From assembly GCA_035498015.1 (NCBI GenBank), contig DATKAO010000114.1, forward strand, positions 1 through 42,270: a stretch of 42,270 nucleotides of DNA. Reading direction: 5' to 3'. Origin of the DNA: Myxococcota bacterium. Lineage in GTDB: Bacteria > Myxococcota_A > UBA9160 > SZUA-336. Numbering within the stretch: position 1 is the first letter of the stretch; the number at the start of each line of letters is the position of its first letter. Made by a program: the position numbers and the translations under genes. The notes beneath the pieces are model-generated. The model worked only from the letters and a program-made list of their open reading frames with translations. It ran no database searches and had not been told where the DNA came from. Of the stretch, positions 26,707-33,845 are shown piece after piece.

Positions 26707-27864
26707 TCAGCCGCAGTCCAGCCCGAGGTTGCGGGCGATGATGCGCTTCATGATCTCGTTCGTACCGGCGTAGATCGACTGCACGGCTGCGTCGGCGAAG
26801 TCGGTCGAGATCGGGTACTCACGCATGAAGCCGTAGCCGCCGTGGAGCTGCAGACACTCGGCGGTGAGCCGCTTCTGCAGGTCGGTGGTCCACCACTTCG
26901 CCATCGAGACCTCGGTCACGATCGACTCCTTGCGCACGTGCGCGGCGAGCAGCTTGTCGGTGAAGGCCTGGCCGACCTCGACCTCGGTCGCGAGCTCCGC
27001 CAGCCGGAACTGGGTGTTCTGGAAGGCCGCGATCGGCTGGCCGAAGGCGCGGCGCGACTTCACGTACTCGAGCGTGTCCTCGAGCGCGCGCCGGCACGAG
27101 GCCATCGACGCCACCGCGATCGACAGCCGCTCCTGCTGCAGGTTCTGCATGAGCTGCTTGAAGCCGCGGCCCTCGGCGCCGCCGAGCAGCGCGTCGGCGG
27201 GCACGCGGCAGTCCTGGAAGAACAGCTCGCTCGTGTCCTGCCCGCGCAGGCCGAGCTTGTCGAGCTTGCGCCCGCGCACGAAGCCGGGCGCCGTGGCCTC
27301 GACCAGGAGCAGGCTGATCCCGCGGTGCGGCGGGTCGGCGCTCGGGTCGGTCTTCGCGACCACGATGAACAGGTCGCCGATCTGGCCGTTCGAGATGAAG
27401 GTCTTCGAGCCGTTCAGCACGTAGTGATTGCCGTCGCGGATCGCCGTGGTCTGCACGTTCGCGAGATCGGAGCCGGTGCCGGGCTCGGTCATGGCGATGC
27501 CGAGCAGCACGTCGCCCGAGATCGCGCCGGGCAGATACTTCTCCTTCTGTGACTCGCTGCCGAACTCGGTCAGGTACGGCATGCAGATGTCGGAGTGCAG
27601 CGACATCATCAGGCCGTGGGCGCGCAGGTAGGCGATCTCCTCCATGACGATCGCGTCGTACAGGAAGTCGGCGCCCGCACCGCCGTACTTCTCGGGCGCG
27701 TTGGCGCCGAGGAAGCCCTCCTCGCCCATGCGCTTCCAGGTGGCGCGGTCGCTCATGCCCTTCTCGTTCCAGCCCGCGATCTTGGGCTCGATCTCGGCGG
27801 CCGCGAAGCGCTTGAATTGCGCCCGGAACAGCTCGTGCTCGTCGCTGAAGATGTCGCGCTTCAT
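26707..27864 (-). CDS. Acyl-CoA dehydrogenase
   Basis: A 385-residue FAD-dependent acyl-CoA dehydrogenase. FAD/substrate segments: GIAMTEPGTGSDLANVQTTA (residues 122-141) and YVLNGSKTFISNG. The C-terminal block is IYAGTNEIMKRIIARNLGL; the position holding the catalytic Glu in short/medium-chain enzymes is Ala (YAGT). Glu245 in NLQQERLSIA, as in isovaleryl/long-chain types, is the likely base. The start has GGAGG 8 nt upstream. It oxidises an acyl-CoA to the 2-enoyl-CoA and passes electrons to ETF. Its chain-length preference is unknown, though a branched or bulky substrate is plausible. Confidence 0.93.
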   Translation of the reverse strand: MKRDIFSDEHELFRAQFKRFAAAEIEPKIAGWNEKGMSDRATWKRMGEEGFLGANAPEKYGGAGADFLYDAIVMEEIAYLRAHGLMMSLHSDICMPYLTEFGSESQKEKYLPGAISGDVLLGIAMTEPGTGSDLANVQTTAIRDGNHYVLNGSKTFISNGQIGDLFIVVAKTDPSADPPHRGISLLLVEATAPGFVRGRKLDKLGLRGQDTSELFFQDCRVPADALLGGAEGRGFKQLMQNLQQERLSIAVASMASCRRALEDTLEYVKSRRAFGQPIAAFQNTQFRLAELATEVEVGQAFTDKLLAAHVRKESIVTEVSMAKWWTTDLQKRLTAECLQLHGGYGFMREYPISTDFADAAVQSIYAGTNEIMKRIIARNLGLDCG

Positions 27865-27993
27865 GGGGGGCCTCCTCGCTCGAGCGCATTCTGTTGACTC
27901 GCGCGCCGGACCGCCAGTGCCCCTGGCGCAAAGCCTGCGCGAATTGGCGCCCGGGCCGCTCGTCGCCGCGGCCGGGACCTGCGAAACCCAGGC

Positions 27994-28392
27994 ATGCGCA
28001 GGCGAACGGCAAGCTGGCTCGTGCTCGGGAGCCTTGGGCTCCTCGCCGCCCCGGGCTGCTACCACGTGCGCAAATGGTTCGCGCCGCGCGCCGCCGAGTC
28101 ACTGGCGCCGCGCGTCTACTCGGAGCGCTGCAGCACCTGCCACGGCGCGACCGGCCGCGGCGACGGGCCCGCGGGCCAGTCACTCGCGCCGCGGGCGCGT
28201 GACTTCACCGACGCGCGCTGGCAGCGCGCGACCTCCGACGACCAGATCCGCGCCACGATCCAGGGCGGCGGCGCGGCGCGCGGCCTGTCGCCGCTCATGC
28301 CCGCGCAGCCGGACCTGGGCGAGCGCGAGCTCGAAGAGCTCCTGACTTACATCCGTCAGGTCGGCACGCGCTCGGCGGGCGGGTCGCTGTAG
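27994..28392 (+). CDS. Small membrane-anchored cytochrome c
   Basis: A 132-residue class I c-type cytochrome. The heme motif CSTCH is at residues 46-50, with a probable Met102 axial ligand in LSPLMPAQ. The N-terminus (TASWLVLGSLGLLAAPGC) is either a signal anchor or a weak lipobox with Cys22. The terminal helix ELEELLTYIRQVG is typical. It would carry electrons in the periplasm. It converges on and overlaps the Rieske oxygenase gene by 37 nt, so their 3' ends are antisense to each other. A 129-nt gap upstream shows no clear promoter. Confidence 0.85.
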   Translation: MRRRTASWLVLGSLGLLAAPGCYHVRKWFAPRAAESLAPRVYSERCSTCHGATGRGDGPAGQSLAPRARDFTDARWQRATSDDQIRATIQGGGAARGLSPLMPAQPDLGERELEELLTYIRQVGTRSAGGSL

Positions 28393-29312
28393 AACTGCCG
28401 GTACCAGCGGCGGAAGCGGCCGAAGTCCTTCTCGGGCTCCGCGAGCAGCGGCCGTTCGCGGTAGATCTTGTTGGACCAGATGGGAATGTCGAGGTTGTAG
28501 TCGTTGACGTAGAACTCGAAGAAGCCCTTCACGATCGCCGGGTCACAGCGCTTGTGCGCGTAGTAGCGGTGCATGATGTGCAGGTGCTCGGGGCCGACCG
28601 GCGTGAGCGCGTTCACCGCGATGCCGTCCATCTGGCCCTTGAAGCGCGTGTACAGGAAGCCCGGCCCCGAGTTGAACGAGTCGACGTCGGTCGTGACCGA
28701 AGCCGTCTTGGCCTGATCGTCGGCCTCGGTGTCGACGTCGATCTTCAGCCGGTAATACGGGCCGTCGGGCTCCCAGTGAATCGCCTTGCACTTCCAGCCG
28801 TGCAGCGTGGCGAAGTGAGCGAAGTCGACCCCGTTCTCCATGATCTCCTGCGGGTGACTCTGGATGGTCCACTCGTGAGTCCGGTGGAGCTCGTAGTTCG
28901 GGTCGAGGATCTCGGGCACGACCTCGGGCTGCCACTCGGGCTCCTTGCCCTCGAGGTGGTGCCAGACGAGGATCATGCCGTTGCACTCGATCGCCGGGTA
29001 GGTCTCGAGGCGCGCCTGCGCAGGGATGCGCTTGGCGTAGGGGATCTCGACGCAGCGTCCCTCGCCCTCGAAGCGCCAGCCGTGGAACGGACACCGAAGA
29101 GTGTTGCCCTCGACCTTGCCGCCCTTGCCCAGGTGCGCGCCCAGGTGCGGGCAGTAGGCATCGGCCGCGCGCACGCGGCCGTCCTCGCCGCGGAAGATCA
29201 CCAGGTCGCGGCCGAGGTAGTGCACGGCCTTCACCTGCCCGCGCGCGAGCGAGTCGGAGTGCGCGACGGCGAACCAGCCGTTGGGGTACGGAGGAAGCGG
29301 GATCCGGGCCAT
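28356..29312 (-). CDS. Rieske non-heme iron oxygenase (KshA-like)
   Basis: A 318-residue oxygenase component. The Rieske [2Fe-2S] ligands are Cys54, His56, Cys74 and His77 (YCPHLGAHLG; LRCPFHGWRF). The mononuclear iron region is ENGVDFAHFATLHGW, with His166 and His171 as ligands and Asp163 as the bridging residue. Size, single-subunit form and motif spacing resemble KshA 3-ketosteroid 9-alpha-hydroxylase and related terpenoid/steroid Rieske oxygenases, rather than two-subunit ring dioxygenases. It needs a reductase; none is adjacent. The gap to the divergent EthD/SDR genes holds a KstR-type palindrome. Substrate assignment is inference. Confidence 0.9.
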   Translation of the reverse strand: MARIPLPPYPNGWFAVAHSDSLARGQVKAVHYLGRDLVIFRGEDGRVRAADAYCPHLGAHLGKGGKVEGNTLRCPFHGWRFEGEGRCVEIPYAKRIPAQARLETYPAIECNGMILVWHHLEGKEPEWQPEVVPEILDPNYELHRTHEWTIQSHPQEIMENGVDFAHFATLHGWKCKAIHWEPDGPYYRLKIDVDTEADDQAKTASVTTDVDSFNSGPGFLYTRFKGQMDGIAVNALTPVGPEHLHIMHRYYAHKRCDPAIVKGFFEFYVNDYNLDIPIWSNKIYRERPLLAEPEKDFGRFRRWYRQFYSDPPAERVPT

Positions 29313-29345
29313 GAAGGGACCTCCCGTGGGCGCGACCGGCAAAAC

Positions 29346-29359
29346 TATAACACGTTGCA
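29346..29359. promoter_or_regulatory. KstR-type TetR-family operator
   Basis: TATAACACGTTGCA is an exact match to TNNAACNNGTTNNA, the 14-bp palindrome recognised by the steroid-catabolism repressor KstR of Actinobacteria. It lies in the 81-nt gap between the divergent Rieske and EthD-like genes. It sits in a short AT-rich patch (AAAACTATAAC) that could hold the promoter itself. Confidence 0.55.
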
Positions 29360-29393
29360 TTTTCGTGCGGCCGAGAATCAGAATGGCGCCGCG

Positions 29394-30086
29394 ATGGAGA
29401 AGCTGGTCTACCTGTTGTGGCGCGATCCGGCCCTGGGCGAGGCCGCCTTCGCGGAGCGGCTCGAGAAGGGCGTCGGCCCGAAGCTGTGCGACGCCGGCGC
29501 GAAGTCGGTCGCCACGAGCTTCGCGCGGGCCAACGCCGACCTCGGCGGCAGCGTGCCGATCCGCGAGACGGGCACGGAGTTCCACGGCCTGGTCTCGTTC
29601 TGGCTGCCCTGCGTCGACGACCGCCCGGCCTATGAGGCGATCCTGCGCGACGCGGCGCCGCGCAGCGCGGGCTATCTGGTGACCGAGTCCGTGCCGCGCG
29701 ACTTCGACCGCCGCACCTGGCCCAACGGCGTGCGCAGCCCCGGCTACAAGATGATCACGGTGTTCGAGCAGCCGGCGCGAGTCACACGCGAGGAGTTCAT
29801 CGAGCGCTGGCACGGCTCGCACACGCCGCTGTCGCTCGAGATCCACCCCATGTGGCGCTACGTGCGCAACGTGGTGGCGCGGCCACTCACTCCCGGCGCG
29901 CCGAACTACGCGGGCATCGTGGAGGAGCACTTCCGCGAGCTCGAGGACCTGACCGACCCCGCGCGCTTCTACGGCGGCAAGGAGAAGCTCGCGGTGAACA
30001 TCCGCCGCGTGCTCGACGACGTGCGCACGTTCCTCGATCTGGAGCGCGTGGTCTCGGTGGTCGCGACCGAGACCATCCTCTCCTAG
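29394..30086 (+). CDS. EthD-domain (dimeric alpha/beta barrel) protein
   Basis: A 230-residue protein made of two ferredoxin-like repeats. The first is MEKLVYLLWRDPALGEAAFA and on; the second is KMITVFEQPARVTREEFIER followed by WHGSHTPLS, the W-x-x-x-H-x-P pattern of EthD/REDY-like domains. Such proteins occur in degradation gene sets for ethers, steroids and aromatics, usually without a proven activity. It is 8 nt upstream of the SDR gene and divergent from the Rieske oxygenase gene, so the three probably form one locus under a shared operator. Confidence 0.8.
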   Translation: MEKLVYLLWRDPALGEAAFAERLEKGVGPKLCDAGAKSVATSFARANADLGGSVPIRETGTEFHGLVSFWLPCVDDRPAYEAILRDAAPRSAGYLVTESVPRDFDRRTWPNGVRSPGYKMITVFEQPARVTREEFIERWHGSHTPLSLEIHPMWRYVRNVVARPLTPGAPNYAGIVEEHFRELEDLTDPARFYGGKEKLAVNIRRVLDDVRTFLDLERVVSVVATETILS

Positions 30087-30094
30087 GAGCCTCG

Positions 30095-30874
30095 ATGCTG
30101 CTCGAGAACAAGGTCGCGGTCGTCTCGGGCATCGGCCCGGGCCTGGGGCGCGACATCGCGCTGGCCTTCGCGCGCGAGGGCGCGCAGCTCGCGTTGGGCG
30201 CGCGCAGCTCCGACTACCTGGAGTCAGTGGCGAAGGAGGTGCGCGCGCTGGGCGTGCGCGCGATCGCGCTGCCGACCGACATCACGAACCTGGCGGACTG
30301 CGCCCGGCTGGTCGGCCAGGCCGAGGAGGAGCTCGGCGGCGTCGACGTGCTGGTGAACAACGCCTACCACCCGGGCACGTACCAGCTGTTCGAGTCGGCC
30401 GACCTCGAGCTGTGGCGCGCGCCCATCGAGGTGAACCTGCTCGGCTCGCTGCGACTCACTCAAGAGGCGGTGCCGCGGCTCAAGAAGCGCGGCGGCGGCT
30501 CGATCGTGTTCGTGAACTCGATGATCGTGCGCGAGGTGCTGCCCACCATGGCGAGCTACGCGGCGTCGAAAGGGGCCTTGCTGGCGGCGGCGCAGGGCCT
30601 GGCGCGCGAGCTCGGCCCGCACAAGATCCGCGTGAATTCGGTGCTGCCGGGCTACATCTGGGGCGCCACGCTCGAAGGCTACTTCAAGGCGCAGGCCGCC
30701 GCGCGCGGAGTGACTCCCGAGGCCGTGTACCGCGAGGTCGCGTCCAAGATCGCGCTCGGGAAGATCCCCAGCTCGGAGGAGATCGTGGGCGCGGTGGTGT
30801 TCTTCGCCAGCGACCTGTCGCGCGCGGTCACCGGCCAGACGCTCGACGTGAACGGCGGCCAGGTGATGGCCTGA
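30095..30874 (+). CDS. Short-chain dehydrogenase/reductase
   Basis: A 259-residue classical SDR. The cofactor loop is VAVVSGIGPGLGRDIALAFA (G-x3-G-x-G with Ser for the usual Thr before it); NNA is present in VLVNNAYHP; the catalytic Ser is in VFVNSMIV; Tyr and Lys are in YAASK. The Arg in GARSSDYL after the second strand hints at NADP(H). C-terminal VTGQTLDVNGGQVMA is the standard SDR ending. It interconverts an alcohol and a ketone. TAGGAGCC upstream is the ribosome site, overlapping the stop of the EthD gene. Operon context suggests a steroid- or terpenoid-like substrate (inference). Confidence 0.92.
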   Translation: MLLENKVAVVSGIGPGLGRDIALAFAREGAQLALGARSSDYLESVAKEVRALGVRAIALPTDITNLADCARLVGQAEEELGGVDVLVNNAYHPGTYQLFESADLELWRAPIEVNLLGSLRLTQEAVPRLKKRGGGSIVFVNSMIVREVLPTMASYAASKGALLAAAQGLARELGPHKIRVNSVLPGYIWGATLEGYFKAQAAARGVTPEAVYREVASKIALGKIPSSEEIVGAVVFFASDLSRAVTGQTLDVNGGQVMA

Positions 30875-30875
30875 G

Positions 30876-31982
30876 TCAGGGCCGGGCGGCCAGCCAGAGC
30901 GCGAGCTCCGGGTCGGCCGGGAACAGCTCGAGCCGGCGCGCCGCGAAGTCCGGCCGCGCGACGCCCAGCGCGAACGCCCCTGCCCCGTCGAGCCAGCCGG
31001 CCCGGCGCGCCCGGGCGAGCAGACCCAGGGCGCTCGTCCCGGCCGTGAAGCGCGCGTTCCACTCGACCACCGCACGCAGGCGCTCGCGCCCGTCTGCGGC
31101 CCGGTAGGTGAAGGCGTCGAGGCCACACGGTCCGGTGTAGCCCCGAGCGGCGGCGGCGCGCGCGAGCACGGCCGCGGCGGCGCGCAGCTCGGCGTCCCAG
31201 GGGCTGCCGGAGTGGATCGAGCCGTCGGCTCGGATCACGCCGCAGTGACCCAGCGGCACGCCCGCCGGAGTCAGGACCTGGCCCAGGGTCCCGAGCACCC
31301 GTTGGTCGCCGGGACCGTTGATCCAGAGCTGCGCCGACAGGTCCGCAGTGCGCTCGAGCCACGGCTCCACCACGCAGCCGGCGCGCTCGCGGAAGCGCGG
31401 CAGGTTGCCGCGCAGCGACTCGGGGTCGAGCCGGCCGTCGCGGCCGGTGAGCCGCCCGCGGCCGCTCGTGCCCAGGCGCGGCTTCAGCACGAACTCCTCG
31501 CGCAGCTCGGCGGGCCAGCGTTCGACCTCGGCCTCGATCCGACACCGGACGGTGTCGGCGGCGCCGAGCTCCTCGGGCCCGAGCGCGAACGCGGTCTCGC
31601 CGATCTCGGCGGGCAGCAGGCCCGCGGCGCGCGCGACCTCGAGCGCGAAGGCCTTGTCGTGCACCGCCGCCACCACCCCGGGCGGCGCGGCCGCGAGGGG
31701 CACGCGCGCGTGCCGGGCCGCCGCCTCGGCCTCGGGCGTGGAGAGCCAGGGCACGAGACCGGGCGACTCACACGTCTCCAGGGCCGCCCGCTGCGCATCG
31801 CGCTCGAGCGCACTCGCGAGCTCGGCACGCGCGGCCAGGCCATCGGCGCGCGGCGCGTCGGCCGGGAACAGCGCGGCCCACAGCCAGGCGGCCGCGCGCA
31901 CGCGCGGGTGCGCGGCCATGCGCCGCCAGCCGTCGCCCTCCTCGGCTCCGAGGTTGGCGAACAAGAGCGGCGAGTCACTCAT
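30876..31982 (-). CDS. ATP-grasp-fold protein, partner of DUF455 gene
   Basis: A 368-residue protein with an ATP-grasp C-terminal half. Lys167 with the glycine-rich loop (FVLKPRLGTSGRGRL) would bind ATP; VEPWLERTADLSAQLWI is the next strand pair; Asp289 (GLDAF) and Glu307/Asn309 (VEWNARF) are the expected Mg ligands. HDKAFALEVARAAGLLP near residue 108 is a typical pre-grasp helix. The N-terminal ~100 residues are unrecognised. Family members ligate a carboxylate to an amine or thiol via acyl phosphate. It follows the DUF455 ferritin-like gene by 31 nt on the same strand and converges on the SDR gene with one spare base. Confidence 0.72.
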   Translation of the reverse strand: MSDSPLLFANLGAEEGDGWRRMAAHPRVRAAAWLWAALFPADAPRADGLAARAELASALERDAQRAALETCESPGLVPWLSTPEAEAAARHARVPLAAAPPGVVAAVHDKAFALEVARAAGLLPAEIGETAFALGPEELGAADTVRCRIEAEVERWPAELREEFVLKPRLGTSGRGRLTGRDGRLDPESLRGNLPRFRERAGCVVEPWLERTADLSAQLWINGPGDQRVLGTLGQVLTPAGVPLGHCGVIRADGSIHSGSPWDAELRAAAAVLARAAAARGYTGPCGLDAFTYRAADGRERLRAVVEWNARFTAGTSALGLLARARRAGWLDGAGAFALGVARPDFAARRLELFPADPELALWLAARP

Positions 31983-32013
31983 GATGCAGCTCCGACGAGC
32001 ACCGCGGGCACCC

Positions 32014-32868
32014 CTACCGACGGCTCTGCCTGCGCGGCCGGCTCTCTTGAGTCGCGCGCGCGTCGCGCACGTGGGCGATCATGGCCTCGGAGAGTCCCGC
32101 CTCGCGCCGCGCTGCGGCATCGAAGCGCCGGCCCTTGGCGCGCGACGCCTCGAGCGGAAACGGCACCGACGCGCTGTAGGCCTGCACGTCGCTCTCGCCC
32201 GCGGGCGCGAGCCGGGCGAGCCAGCGTACGGCGAGCGCCACGTGGCGGCACTCGTCGCGGTGCACGGCCTCCGACACGGCCGCGCTCGCCTCGTCGCCCG
32301 CGCGCCGGAAGCCCTCGGCGTAGAGCGCGGTGAAGTCGAGGTTCGCCTGCTCCAAGGTGAGTCCCATGGCGGCCAGGAAGGCGGCCGGGCCGCGCGCGTG
32401 GGCGTGGATCGCCGGGGCGTGCTTCCAGAAGTAGTCCGAGAGCGGCTCGTCGGCGAGACCTTCTCCGTACGCGTAGAGGCGCTCGAGATACATGCGGCAG
32501 TGTCTCTGCTCGTCCGCGAGCGCGGCCGCCCAGCCGCGCCGCAGGTCCGGGGGCGCGTCGGGCCAGCGCAGCAGCGCCCAGGCGAAGAGCTCCACGGCCA
32601 TGAGCTCGTGGTGGGCGAAGCGCCGGAGACAGGCCGCTCGGGCCCGCGGGTCGCCGAGCTCGGCCGGGCGCGGCAGGCGGGCGGCGCCGCCGCGCATCTC
32701 GAGCTCGGGCGCGCGCGCCGGCCGGGGCACGTACAGCGGCTCGCCGGGCGTGGCGTCGGGCAGCGCCGAGCCGTCGGGCGCGAGCGGCGGCGCGAGCTTC
32801 CGCGCGAGGTCCCCTGCCTGGAGGATCTCGAGGCAATGGTTGCGCAGCTCACGGGCCGGGGCAGTCAT
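32014..32868 (-). CDS. DUF455 ferritin-like di-iron protein
   Basis: A 284-residue protein of the DUF455 ferritin-like family. Carboxylate/histidine metal ligands are visible in four helices: Glu88 (RFAHHELMAVELFAWALL), Glu120 with His123 (ADEQRHCRMYLERL), an acidic pair near 173-178 (TLEQANLDFTALYAEGF), and Glu206 with His209 (HRDECRHVALAVRWL). That gives two E-x2-H motifs, as in di-iron oxygenases such as MiaE-like enzymes. No membrane segment or signal. A TAGTCT box lies 8 nt before the ATG. It heads a two-gene unit with the ATP-grasp gene and is divergent from the diadenylate cyclase gene. The reaction is unknown. Confidence 0.8.
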   Translation of the reverse strand: MTAPARELRNHCLEILQAGDLARKLAPPLAPDGSALPDATPGEPLYVPRPARAPELEMRGGAARLPRPAELGDPRARAACLRRFAHHELMAVELFAWALLRWPDAPPDLRRGWAAALADEQRHCRMYLERLYAYGEGLADEPLSDYFWKHAPAIHAHARGPAAFLAAMGLTLEQANLDFTALYAEGFRRAGDEASAAVSEAVHRDECRHVALAVRWLARLAPAGESDVQAYSASVPFPLEASRAKGRRFDAAARREAGLSEAMIAHVRDARATQESRPRRQSRR

Positions 32869-32966: not shown

Positions 32967-33845
32967 ATGGGCGCCGCGCTGCGCAGCTTCGGTCCCGGAG
33001 ATGCGCTCGACATCGCGATCGTGGCGCTCCTGCTCTACGCGGGAATGAGCTGGCTGCGCCGCTCGCACGCGGCGCTCGCGGCGCTGGGTCTCTCGCTCTT
33101 GGGCACGGTGTATCTCGCGGCGCGCGCGCTCGGGCTGGGGCTCACGACCTGGCTGTTCCAGGGCTTCTTCGCGGTGCTCGCGCTCGCGCTGGTGGTGATC
33201 TTCCAGGAGGAGCTGCGGCGCGGCTTCGAAGCGCTGGCGGCGTTCGCGCTCGCGCCGCGCAGCGAGCGCCGGCCCCGGCTCGACACGCCGGACCTCTTGG
33301 CGCGGGCGCTCGCCGACCTGGCCGCCGCGCGCATCGGGGCGCTCGTGGTCGTGGCCGGCACGCACCCGCTCGAGCGCCACCTGCAGGGCGGTCACGAGCT
33401 CGGCGGGCGCCTCTCGACCGCGCTGCTCGCGAGCCTGTTCGATCCGCACTCACCGGGTCACGACGGCGCCGTGGTGGTCGAGGACCGCGACGTGAGCCGC
33501 TTCGGCTGCCACCTGCCGCTCACGCGCGGCCCGTCGGCGCTGCGCGGGCTGGGCACGAGGCACAGCGCAGCGCTGGGTCTCTCGGAGCGCACCGACGCGC
33601 TCTGTCTCGTGGTCTCCGAGGAGCGCGGCTCGGTCTCGGCGGCGCGCGACGGCGAGCTGCGCCAGATCGGCTCGGAGGACGAGCTGGCCAAGCTCGTGAG
33701 CGCCTTCTATCGCGAGCGCCGGGCGCTGGGCCGTGCGCGCCCGCGCCTGGGCGAGCTGGTGCGCGGGAGACACTGGGAGAAGGTCGCGGCGCTGGCGTTG
33801 GCGGTCGGGCTGTGGCTGCTGCGGCTCAGCGTGCGCGTCCACTGA
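32967..33845 (+). CDS. Membrane diadenylate cyclase (CdaA-like)
   Basis: A 292-residue c-di-AMP synthase. Three N-terminal membrane helices (about 14-27, 36-58, 63-79) lead into a DAC domain with DGA at 166-168 (GHDGAVVVEDRDVSRFGCHL) and RHSAALG at 198-204, where the family norm is RHRAA-x-G; the second Arg is Ser here. Unlike typical CdaA (~270 residues) it has a fourth hydrophobic helix at the C-terminus (RHWEKVAALALAVGLWLLRL) that resembles the first helix of YbbR/CdaR proteins. The ATG has GGGAGG 5 nt upstream. Its 3' end overlaps the TMTC-like gene by 20 nt. Confidence 0.87.
   Translation: MGAALRSFGPGDALDIAIVALLLYAGMSWLRRSHAALAALGLSLLGTVYLAARALGLGLTTWLFQGFFAVLALALVVIFQEELRRGFEALAAFALAPRSERRPRLDTPDLLARALADLAAARIGALVVVAGTHPLERHLQGGHELGGRLSTALLASLFDPHSPGHDGAVVVEDRDVSRFGCHLPLTRGPSALRGLGTRHSAALGLSERTDALCLVVSEERGSVSAARDGELRQIGSEDELAKLVSAFYRERRALGRARPRLGELVRGRHWEKVAALALAVGLWLLRLSVRVH

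What the first reader, a model, noticed from the sequence alone, without database searches (positions are those of the whole stretch)
30876..32868. Two-gene DUF455 ferritin-like / ATP-grasp unit
A di-iron-type protein with two E-x2-H motifs is followed 31 nt later by an ATP-grasp protein whose N-terminal ~100 residues are unrecognised. An oxidase plus a carboxylate ligase is the minimal chemistry for making a modified peptide, amino-acid conjugate or cofactor. Neither gene is beside a pathway that would explain it. I know of no described system of this composition.
Basis: partly seen in the sequence, partly recalled or inferred. Interest (0 to 1): 0.65.

Follow-up and report, generated by a model that had tools for sequence, protein, structure and literature searches.

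The report
Diiron-oxidase and ATP-grasp ligase partner genes
Two neighbouring genes, one predicted to oxidise a small molecule with two iron atoms and one predicted to join molecules through an amide bond using ATP, turn out to be partners kept together, and often fused into one protein, across two bacterial phyla, yet what they make is unknown.

Summary
On the minus strand, a DUF455 ferritin-like protein (32014-32868) is followed after 31 nt by a 368-aa protein (30876-31982) with no Pfam or NCBIfam hit. AlphaFold2 plus Foldseek place the latter in the ATP-grasp fold, and its catalytic residues are conserved. The pair is not a chance neighbourhood. In the window's phylum and in a second phylum (that of the Planctomycetes record Pan216), DUF455 lies directly upstream of the ATP-grasp gene, or is fused to it in one reading frame, in 63 of 73 sampled loci or genomes that hold both. 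Fused and separate forms interconverted several times. Presence of the two genes correlates very strongly (p 5e-26 and 1e-22), and both persist in genomes where they are unlinked. All diiron ligands are invariant (73/73). The ATP-grasp is distantly related to LdmS, an Asp-Met dipeptide ligase. No third gene or small precursor ORF is conserved beside the pair. The best reading is a self-contained oxidase plus amide-ligase unit making an oxidised amino-acid conjugate; the substrate is unknown. Oxidase plus ATP-grasp pairs are known (for example mangotoxin), but with a different diiron oxidase fold. I found no published account of this pair.

The parts
32014..32868 (-). DUF455 (PF04305) ferritin-like diiron protein, 284 aa; first gene of the pair
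   Evidence: PF04305 5.6e-40; four long helices in the AF2 model of a fused homologue, one ligand set in each
32500..32511 (-). First E-x2-H iron-binding motif (E120, H123)
   Evidence: 73/73 homologues identical
32242..32253 (-). Second E-x2-H iron-binding motif (E206, H209)
   Evidence: 73/73 homologues identical
32605..32607 (-). E88, presumed iron ligand of helix 1 (E93 and H87 are also invariant)
   Evidence: 73/73
32350..32352 (-). E173, presumed iron ligand of helix 3
   Evidence: 73/73
31983..32013 (-). 31-nt spacer between the two genes; absent in the many homologues in which the two are one reading frame
30876..31982 (-). LdmS-like ATP-grasp ligase, 368 aa; second gene of the pair
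   Evidence: AF2 pLDDT 88.8; Foldseek best hit 7r8q 1.2e-11; LdmS profile finds distant members of the family up to 1.4e-10
31668..31982 (-). N-terminal pre-ATP-grasp region with conserved N10-x3-E14
   Evidence: weak PF18604 hit in a fused homologue
31482..31484 (-). K167, presumed ATP-binding lysine, in the motif LKPRLGTSGRGR
   Evidence: 74/74 homologues; aligned with the corresponding region of biotin carboxylase
31050..31118 (-). Presumed Mg/ATP ligands D289, E307, N309 and substrate-side R311
   Evidence: D289, N309, R311 74/74; E307 is E 69/74 and D 5/74

Best explanation
The two genes encode one functional unit. DUF455 is an O2-activating ferritin-like diiron oxidase or oxygenase. The second protein is an LdmS-like ATP-grasp carboxylate-amine ligase that activates a carboxylate as an acyl phosphate and joins it to an amine. 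Acting in sequence, they most likely make a small oxidised amino-acid conjugate or dipeptide from common metabolites, with no third dedicated gene. Shown: conserved linkage, gene fusion, co-occurrence, the ATP-grasp fold and conserved active-site residues. Inferred: that DUF455 oxidises an organic substrate, that the ligase uses an amino acid, the order of the steps, and the product.
For: Adjacency or fusion in 63 of 73 sampled loci or genomes holding both, always DUF455 upstream and on the same strand; fused frames in both phyla, with 6 fused/separate changes on the DUF455 tree, at least 3 forced by strongly supported branches. Co-occurrence 61 both/4/8/69 neither of 142 genomes (p 5e-26) and 30/1/4/84 of 119 (p 1e-22). 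Diiron ligands 73/73 and ATP-grasp residues K167, D289, N309, R311 74/74. Foldseek hits to amino-acid and peptide ligases: LdmS 7r8q, BesA 8yi6, 8ynd, 3wvq; LdmS profile hits to this family.
Against: No substrate is known and no pathway gene lies nearby to suggest one. Foldseek also matches biotin carboxylase and PurK, so the acceptor need not be an amino acid. DUF455 has no characterised member in the papers searched, and I have no Foldseek match for that domain alone because ATP-grasp hits filled the list for the fusion. AF2 pTM for the fusion is 0.66, so the relative domain placement is not settled.
Confidence: 0.55

Rival explanations
1. The pair modifies a macromolecule rather than making a small metabolite: DUF455 hydroxylates tRNA (as MiaE does) or a protein, and the ATP-grasp adds an amino acid to it.
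For: No transporter, regulator or other biosynthetic gene is conserved beside the pair, and the ATP-grasp is common in the window's relatives (44 of 60), which resembles a housekeeping modification.
Against: Foldseek and LdmS-profile matches are to small-molecule and peptide ligases, not to RimK-type protein modifiers. No RNA-binding domain was seen in the long fused frames scanned against Pfam.
Confidence: 0.2
2. DUF455 is not an oxidase of the ligase's substrate but a redox, oxygen or iron-handling protein that protects or gates the ligase.
For: Ferritin-like folds also store or sense iron, and weak hits include the encapsulated-ferritin model EncFtn-like.
Against: One strictly conserved E, ExxH, E, ExxH set in a single chain is the pattern of catalytic diiron oxygenases; weak hits also include phenol hydroxylase, AurF and haem-oxygenase-like diiron enzymes.
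Confidence: 0.12
3. The pair matures a ribosomally made peptide, with a precursor encoded elsewhere in the genome.
For: ATP-grasp ligases make graspetides, a class of such peptides (PMC8939145, abstract); diiron enzymes in such pathways are recalled, not tested.
Against: No small ORF is conserved in the flanks of the adjacent or fused pairs, and the ATP-grasp resembles free amino-acid ligases.
Confidence: 0.07
4. The two genes are neighbours by chance or by synteny alone.
For: None after the survey.
Against: Two phyla, repeated fusion, and co-occurrence even when unlinked.
Confidence: 0.01

Closest known systems
Mangotoxin pathway (diiron oxidase MboA with ATP-grasp ligases MboC and MboD; PMC13185094)
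   Same: A diiron oxidase works with ATP-grasp amino-acid ligases to make a small modified peptide; that study reports at least 25 clusters pairing such an oxidase with an ATP-grasp.
   Different: MboA is a haem-oxygenase-fold oxidase (search set IPR016084), whereas DUF455 has the ferritin-type E, ExxH, E, ExxH pattern; the mbo cluster has further genes including a redox partner, while this unit has only two, often fused.
BesC and BesA of beta-ethynylserine biosynthesis (BesA structure 8yi6)
   Same: Diiron oxidase plus ATP-grasp ligase acting on amino acids (pathway recalled, not tested); the BesA structure is among the closest Foldseek matches.
   Different: BesC is a haem-oxygenase-fold oxidase and the pathway has other enzymes; sequence identity to BesA is 16% over the fold.
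LdmS, L-aspartate--L-methionine ligase of Staphylococcus aureus (SAOUHSC_02373, 7r8q; the link of the two names is recalled)
   Same: 7r8q is the best fold match of the window's ATP-grasp (1.2e-11), and LdmS is the only characterised ligase family whose profile reached this family in the libraries scanned.
   Different: 15% identity; profile scores of 18-41 bits against a cut-off of 475; I know of no DUF455 partner for LdmS, and this was not tested.
DUF455 (PF04305)
   Same: The oxidase is a clear member (5.6e-40).
   Different: Other DUF455-like copies in the same genome (L002, L003) are not next to this ATP-grasp, and the Sinorhizobium plasmids that hold a DUF455 relative have no match to this ATP-grasp; only one subfamily is paired.

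Membership tests
DUF455 (PF04305) | Score above the Pfam gathering cut-off | tested here: met
   137.9 bits against 34.3
Ferritin-like diiron oxidases | Four-helix bundle with E, ExxH, E, ExxH ligands, one set per helix | tested here: met
   Long helices 67-94, 100-126, 153-182 and 186-213 of the fused homologue carry the ligand motifs; ligands 73/73. Sequence and model only.
Ferritin-like diiron oxidases | Bound di-iron centre and O2-dependent oxidation | not testable with these tools
   Needs purified protein
ATP-grasp superfamily | ATP-grasp fold | tested here: met
   523 PDB matches at E <= 0.001; the 50 listed are ATP-grasp enzymes or larger complexes and carboxylases that contain such a domain
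ATP-grasp superfamily | ATP-binding lysine and acidic/Asn metal ligands in place | tested here: met
   K167, D289, N309, R311 74/74; E307 E or D in 74/74. Assigned from sequence motifs, not from a model with ligand bound.
ATP-grasp superfamily | Pfam or NCBIfam ATP-grasp model above cut-off | tested here: not met
   No hit for the window protein; PF02222 0.0031, below cut-off, in one relative. This is a sensitivity test rather than a defining biological feature; the fold comparison carries the superfamily assignment.
LdmS (NF047900) | Score above the curated cut-off (475 bits) | tested here: not met
   Best 41.2 bits in a relative, none for the window protein. Related, not a member.
Haem-oxygenase-like diiron oxidases (as in mangotoxin) | Haem-oxygenase fold and its ligand pattern | tested here: inconclusive
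   Five of nine DUF455 relatives show PF14518 hits at E up to 10, best 2e-5, but the ligand pattern is the ferritin type; no Foldseek result for the domain alone

The most novel reading that the evidence does not exclude
DUF455 plus this ATP-grasp is an undescribed, self-contained two-enzyme pathway, often one bifunctional protein, that makes a new class of oxidised amino-acid conjugate or cofactor widespread in two bacterial phyla.
Probability: 0.4. Interest if true: 0.8.

Novelty: new variant of a known kind. Interest (0 to 1): 0.56.

Why it matters
DUF455 has no assigned function in the papers searched. A fusion partner and a strict co-occurrence partner turn it into a testable pathway: two genes, in many species one protein, can be expressed and assayed for ADP formation and O2 use with amino acids. 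If the product is a small metabolite present across two phyla, it would be a previously overlooked compound class made without any large biosynthetic cluster, so cluster-mining tools could well miss it.

Tried and rejected
Chance neighbourhood: rejected by the two-phylum survey. A third conserved gene: none across phyla; local synteny only. A RiPP precursor: no conserved small ORF in the flanks. Linkage to c-di-AMP (cdaA next door in the window): seen in only 3 loci of one lineage. Linkage to 5'-deoxyadenosine deaminase: seen only in four genomes in which DUF455 is unlinked from the ATP-grasp. Plasmid records: DUF455 only in Sinorhizobium, without the ATP-grasp. Literature on DUF455, COG2833 and ferritin-like plus ATP-grasp: no functional paper on DUF455. 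A survey of a third phylum was not possible because no genome handle there was available. Paper searches for LdmS found nothing relevant.

Full report
What is there. The window carries two minus-strand genes, DUF455 at 32014-32868 (284 aa) and a 368-aa protein at 30876-31982, separated by 31 nt. They sit between a convergent short-chain dehydrogenase gene (30095-30874, +) and a divergent diadenylate cyclase CdaA gene (32967-33845, +). DUF455 is a clear PF04305 member. The second protein has no Pfam, NCBIfam or PDB sequence hit.

Fold and active sites. The AF2 model of the second protein has mean pLDDT 88.8 and pTM 0.89. Foldseek against the PDB gives 523 matches at E <= 0.001; the listed ones are ATP-grasp enzymes, led by 7r8q (SAOUHSC_02373), with biotin carboxylases, an ATP-grasp peptide ligase (8ynd), BesA (8yi6) and an ATP-grasp protein that I recognise as the pheganomycin ligase PGM1 (3wvq). 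One search aligns HDKAFA and LKPRLGTSGRGR with the corresponding biotin carboxylase motifs, at a non-significant score. Across 74 homologues K167, D289, N309 and R311 are invariant and E307 is Glu or Asp.

In DUF455 the residues E88, E120, H123, E173, E206 and H209, plus H87, E93 and W148, are identical in all 73 homologues. In the model of a fused homologue (pLDDT 87.7, pTM 0.66) these motifs fall one per long helix. This is the pattern of ferritin-like diiron oxygenases. Weak hits to phenol hydroxylase, AurF, haem-oxygenase-like and EncFtn models agree in kind but decide nothing.

Linkage. Of the nine genome contigs relatives of the ATP-grasp, eight have a close DUF455 homologue immediately upstream. 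Of 60 relatives of the window's genome, 44 have the ATP-grasp. Among the 30 loci fetched from that search (the window's own included), 26 have DUF455 directly upstream or fused. In a 27th (G021) the pair is cut by a contig end: DUF455 and the ATP-grasp N-terminus lie together on C54. G032 keeps only a 34-residue DUF455 tail with a stop just upstream of its ATP-grasp, and G052 of the same genus has no adjacent DUF455. G035 has no DUF455 hit.

Profile searches over 142 genomes of the phylum and 119 of the phylum of G060, the genome of the Planctomycetes record Pan216, give 61 both, 4 ATP-grasp only, 8 DUF455 only, 69 neither, and 30/1/4/84 respectively. I counted DUF455 hits of at least 90 bits and left out one weak ATP-grasp hit (G175). 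Fisher p is 5e-26 and 1e-22. Shared ancestry inflates these p-values.

In 84 non-redundant loci the order is always DUF455 then ATP-grasp on the same strand when linked: 26 loci share one open reading frame, 37 are adjacent, and 10 sampled genomes have the two genes unlinked but both present. The fused count uses stop-to-stop frames; several linkers are short (for example 8 residues in L009), and no stop separates the two domains. On the DUF455 tree the fused state needs 6 changes, at least 3 of them forced by strongly supported branches. Repeated fusion or fission, together with co-occurrence when unlinked, is strong evidence for joint function.

Context. ORF clustering over 85 loci finds no gene other than the pair conserved across phyla, and no conserved small ORF in the flanks. 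The unit therefore appears to need only common metabolites.

What the ligase is like. The LdmS profile (L-aspartate--L-methionine ligase) hits distant members of this family below its cut-off: 9e-4 and 6e-4, and up to 1.4e-10, where four of seven hits lie at positions of this family's genes. LdmS is SAOUHSC_02373, the best fold match (naming of that link is my own knowledge). Fold and profile methods agree that the nearest characterised enzyme is an amino-acid ligase. The family is not a member of LdmS.

Mechanism proposed. DUF455 uses O2 and a diiron centre to oxidise an amino acid or similar metabolite, and the ATP-grasp activates a carboxylate as an acyl phosphate and couples it to an amine. 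Either order is possible. This is inference from enzyme class; no substrate evidence exists here.

Comparison. Diiron oxidase plus ATP-grasp pathways exist: PMC13185094 reports at least 25 clusters with haem-oxygenase-fold oxidases and solves mangotoxin. That survey started from IPR016084; DUF455 is a different Pfam family, so this pair is a parallel arrangement with a different oxidase, reduced to two genes or one protein. Among the fifteen papers that mention DUF455, none by title or abstract assigns it a function. I rate it a new variant of a known kind.

Noticed in passing
window 32967-33845 (+): A CdaA-type diadenylate cyclase gene (DAC 5.6e-34, CdaA_N) is divergent from the pair; the same neighbour occurs in L047 and L048 only, so it looks like local synteny.
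   Followed up: partly
window 26707-30874: Acyl-CoA dehydrogenase, a Rieske oxygenase with a KshA-type C-terminal domain, an EthD-domain protein and a short-chain dehydrogenase lie together, resembling a steroid or lipid degradation cluster.
   Followed up: no
G032 C23:5291-5392 (L035/L074) and G052 (L039, L066): In two genomes of one genus the ATP-grasp gene survives without an intact DUF455 beside it; in G032 a 34-residue DUF455 tail with a stop codon remains just upstream.
   Followed up: partly
L151, L161, L163, L167: In four genomes where the pair is unlinked, DUF455 lies directly downstream of an amidohydrolase gene; the L161 copy scores above the cut-off for 5'-deoxyadenosine deaminase.
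   Followed up: partly
L036 1040-3591: In G035, which has the ATP-grasp but no DUF455 hit, the ATP-grasp gene is directly downstream of a glutathione-disulfide reductase gene (TIGR01424 above cut-off).
   Followed up: partly
G000 C141:59479-60063 and C132:327-896 (L002, L003): The window's genome holds two further DUF455-family genes above the Pfam cut-off, with no copy of this ATP-grasp beside them.
   Followed up: partly
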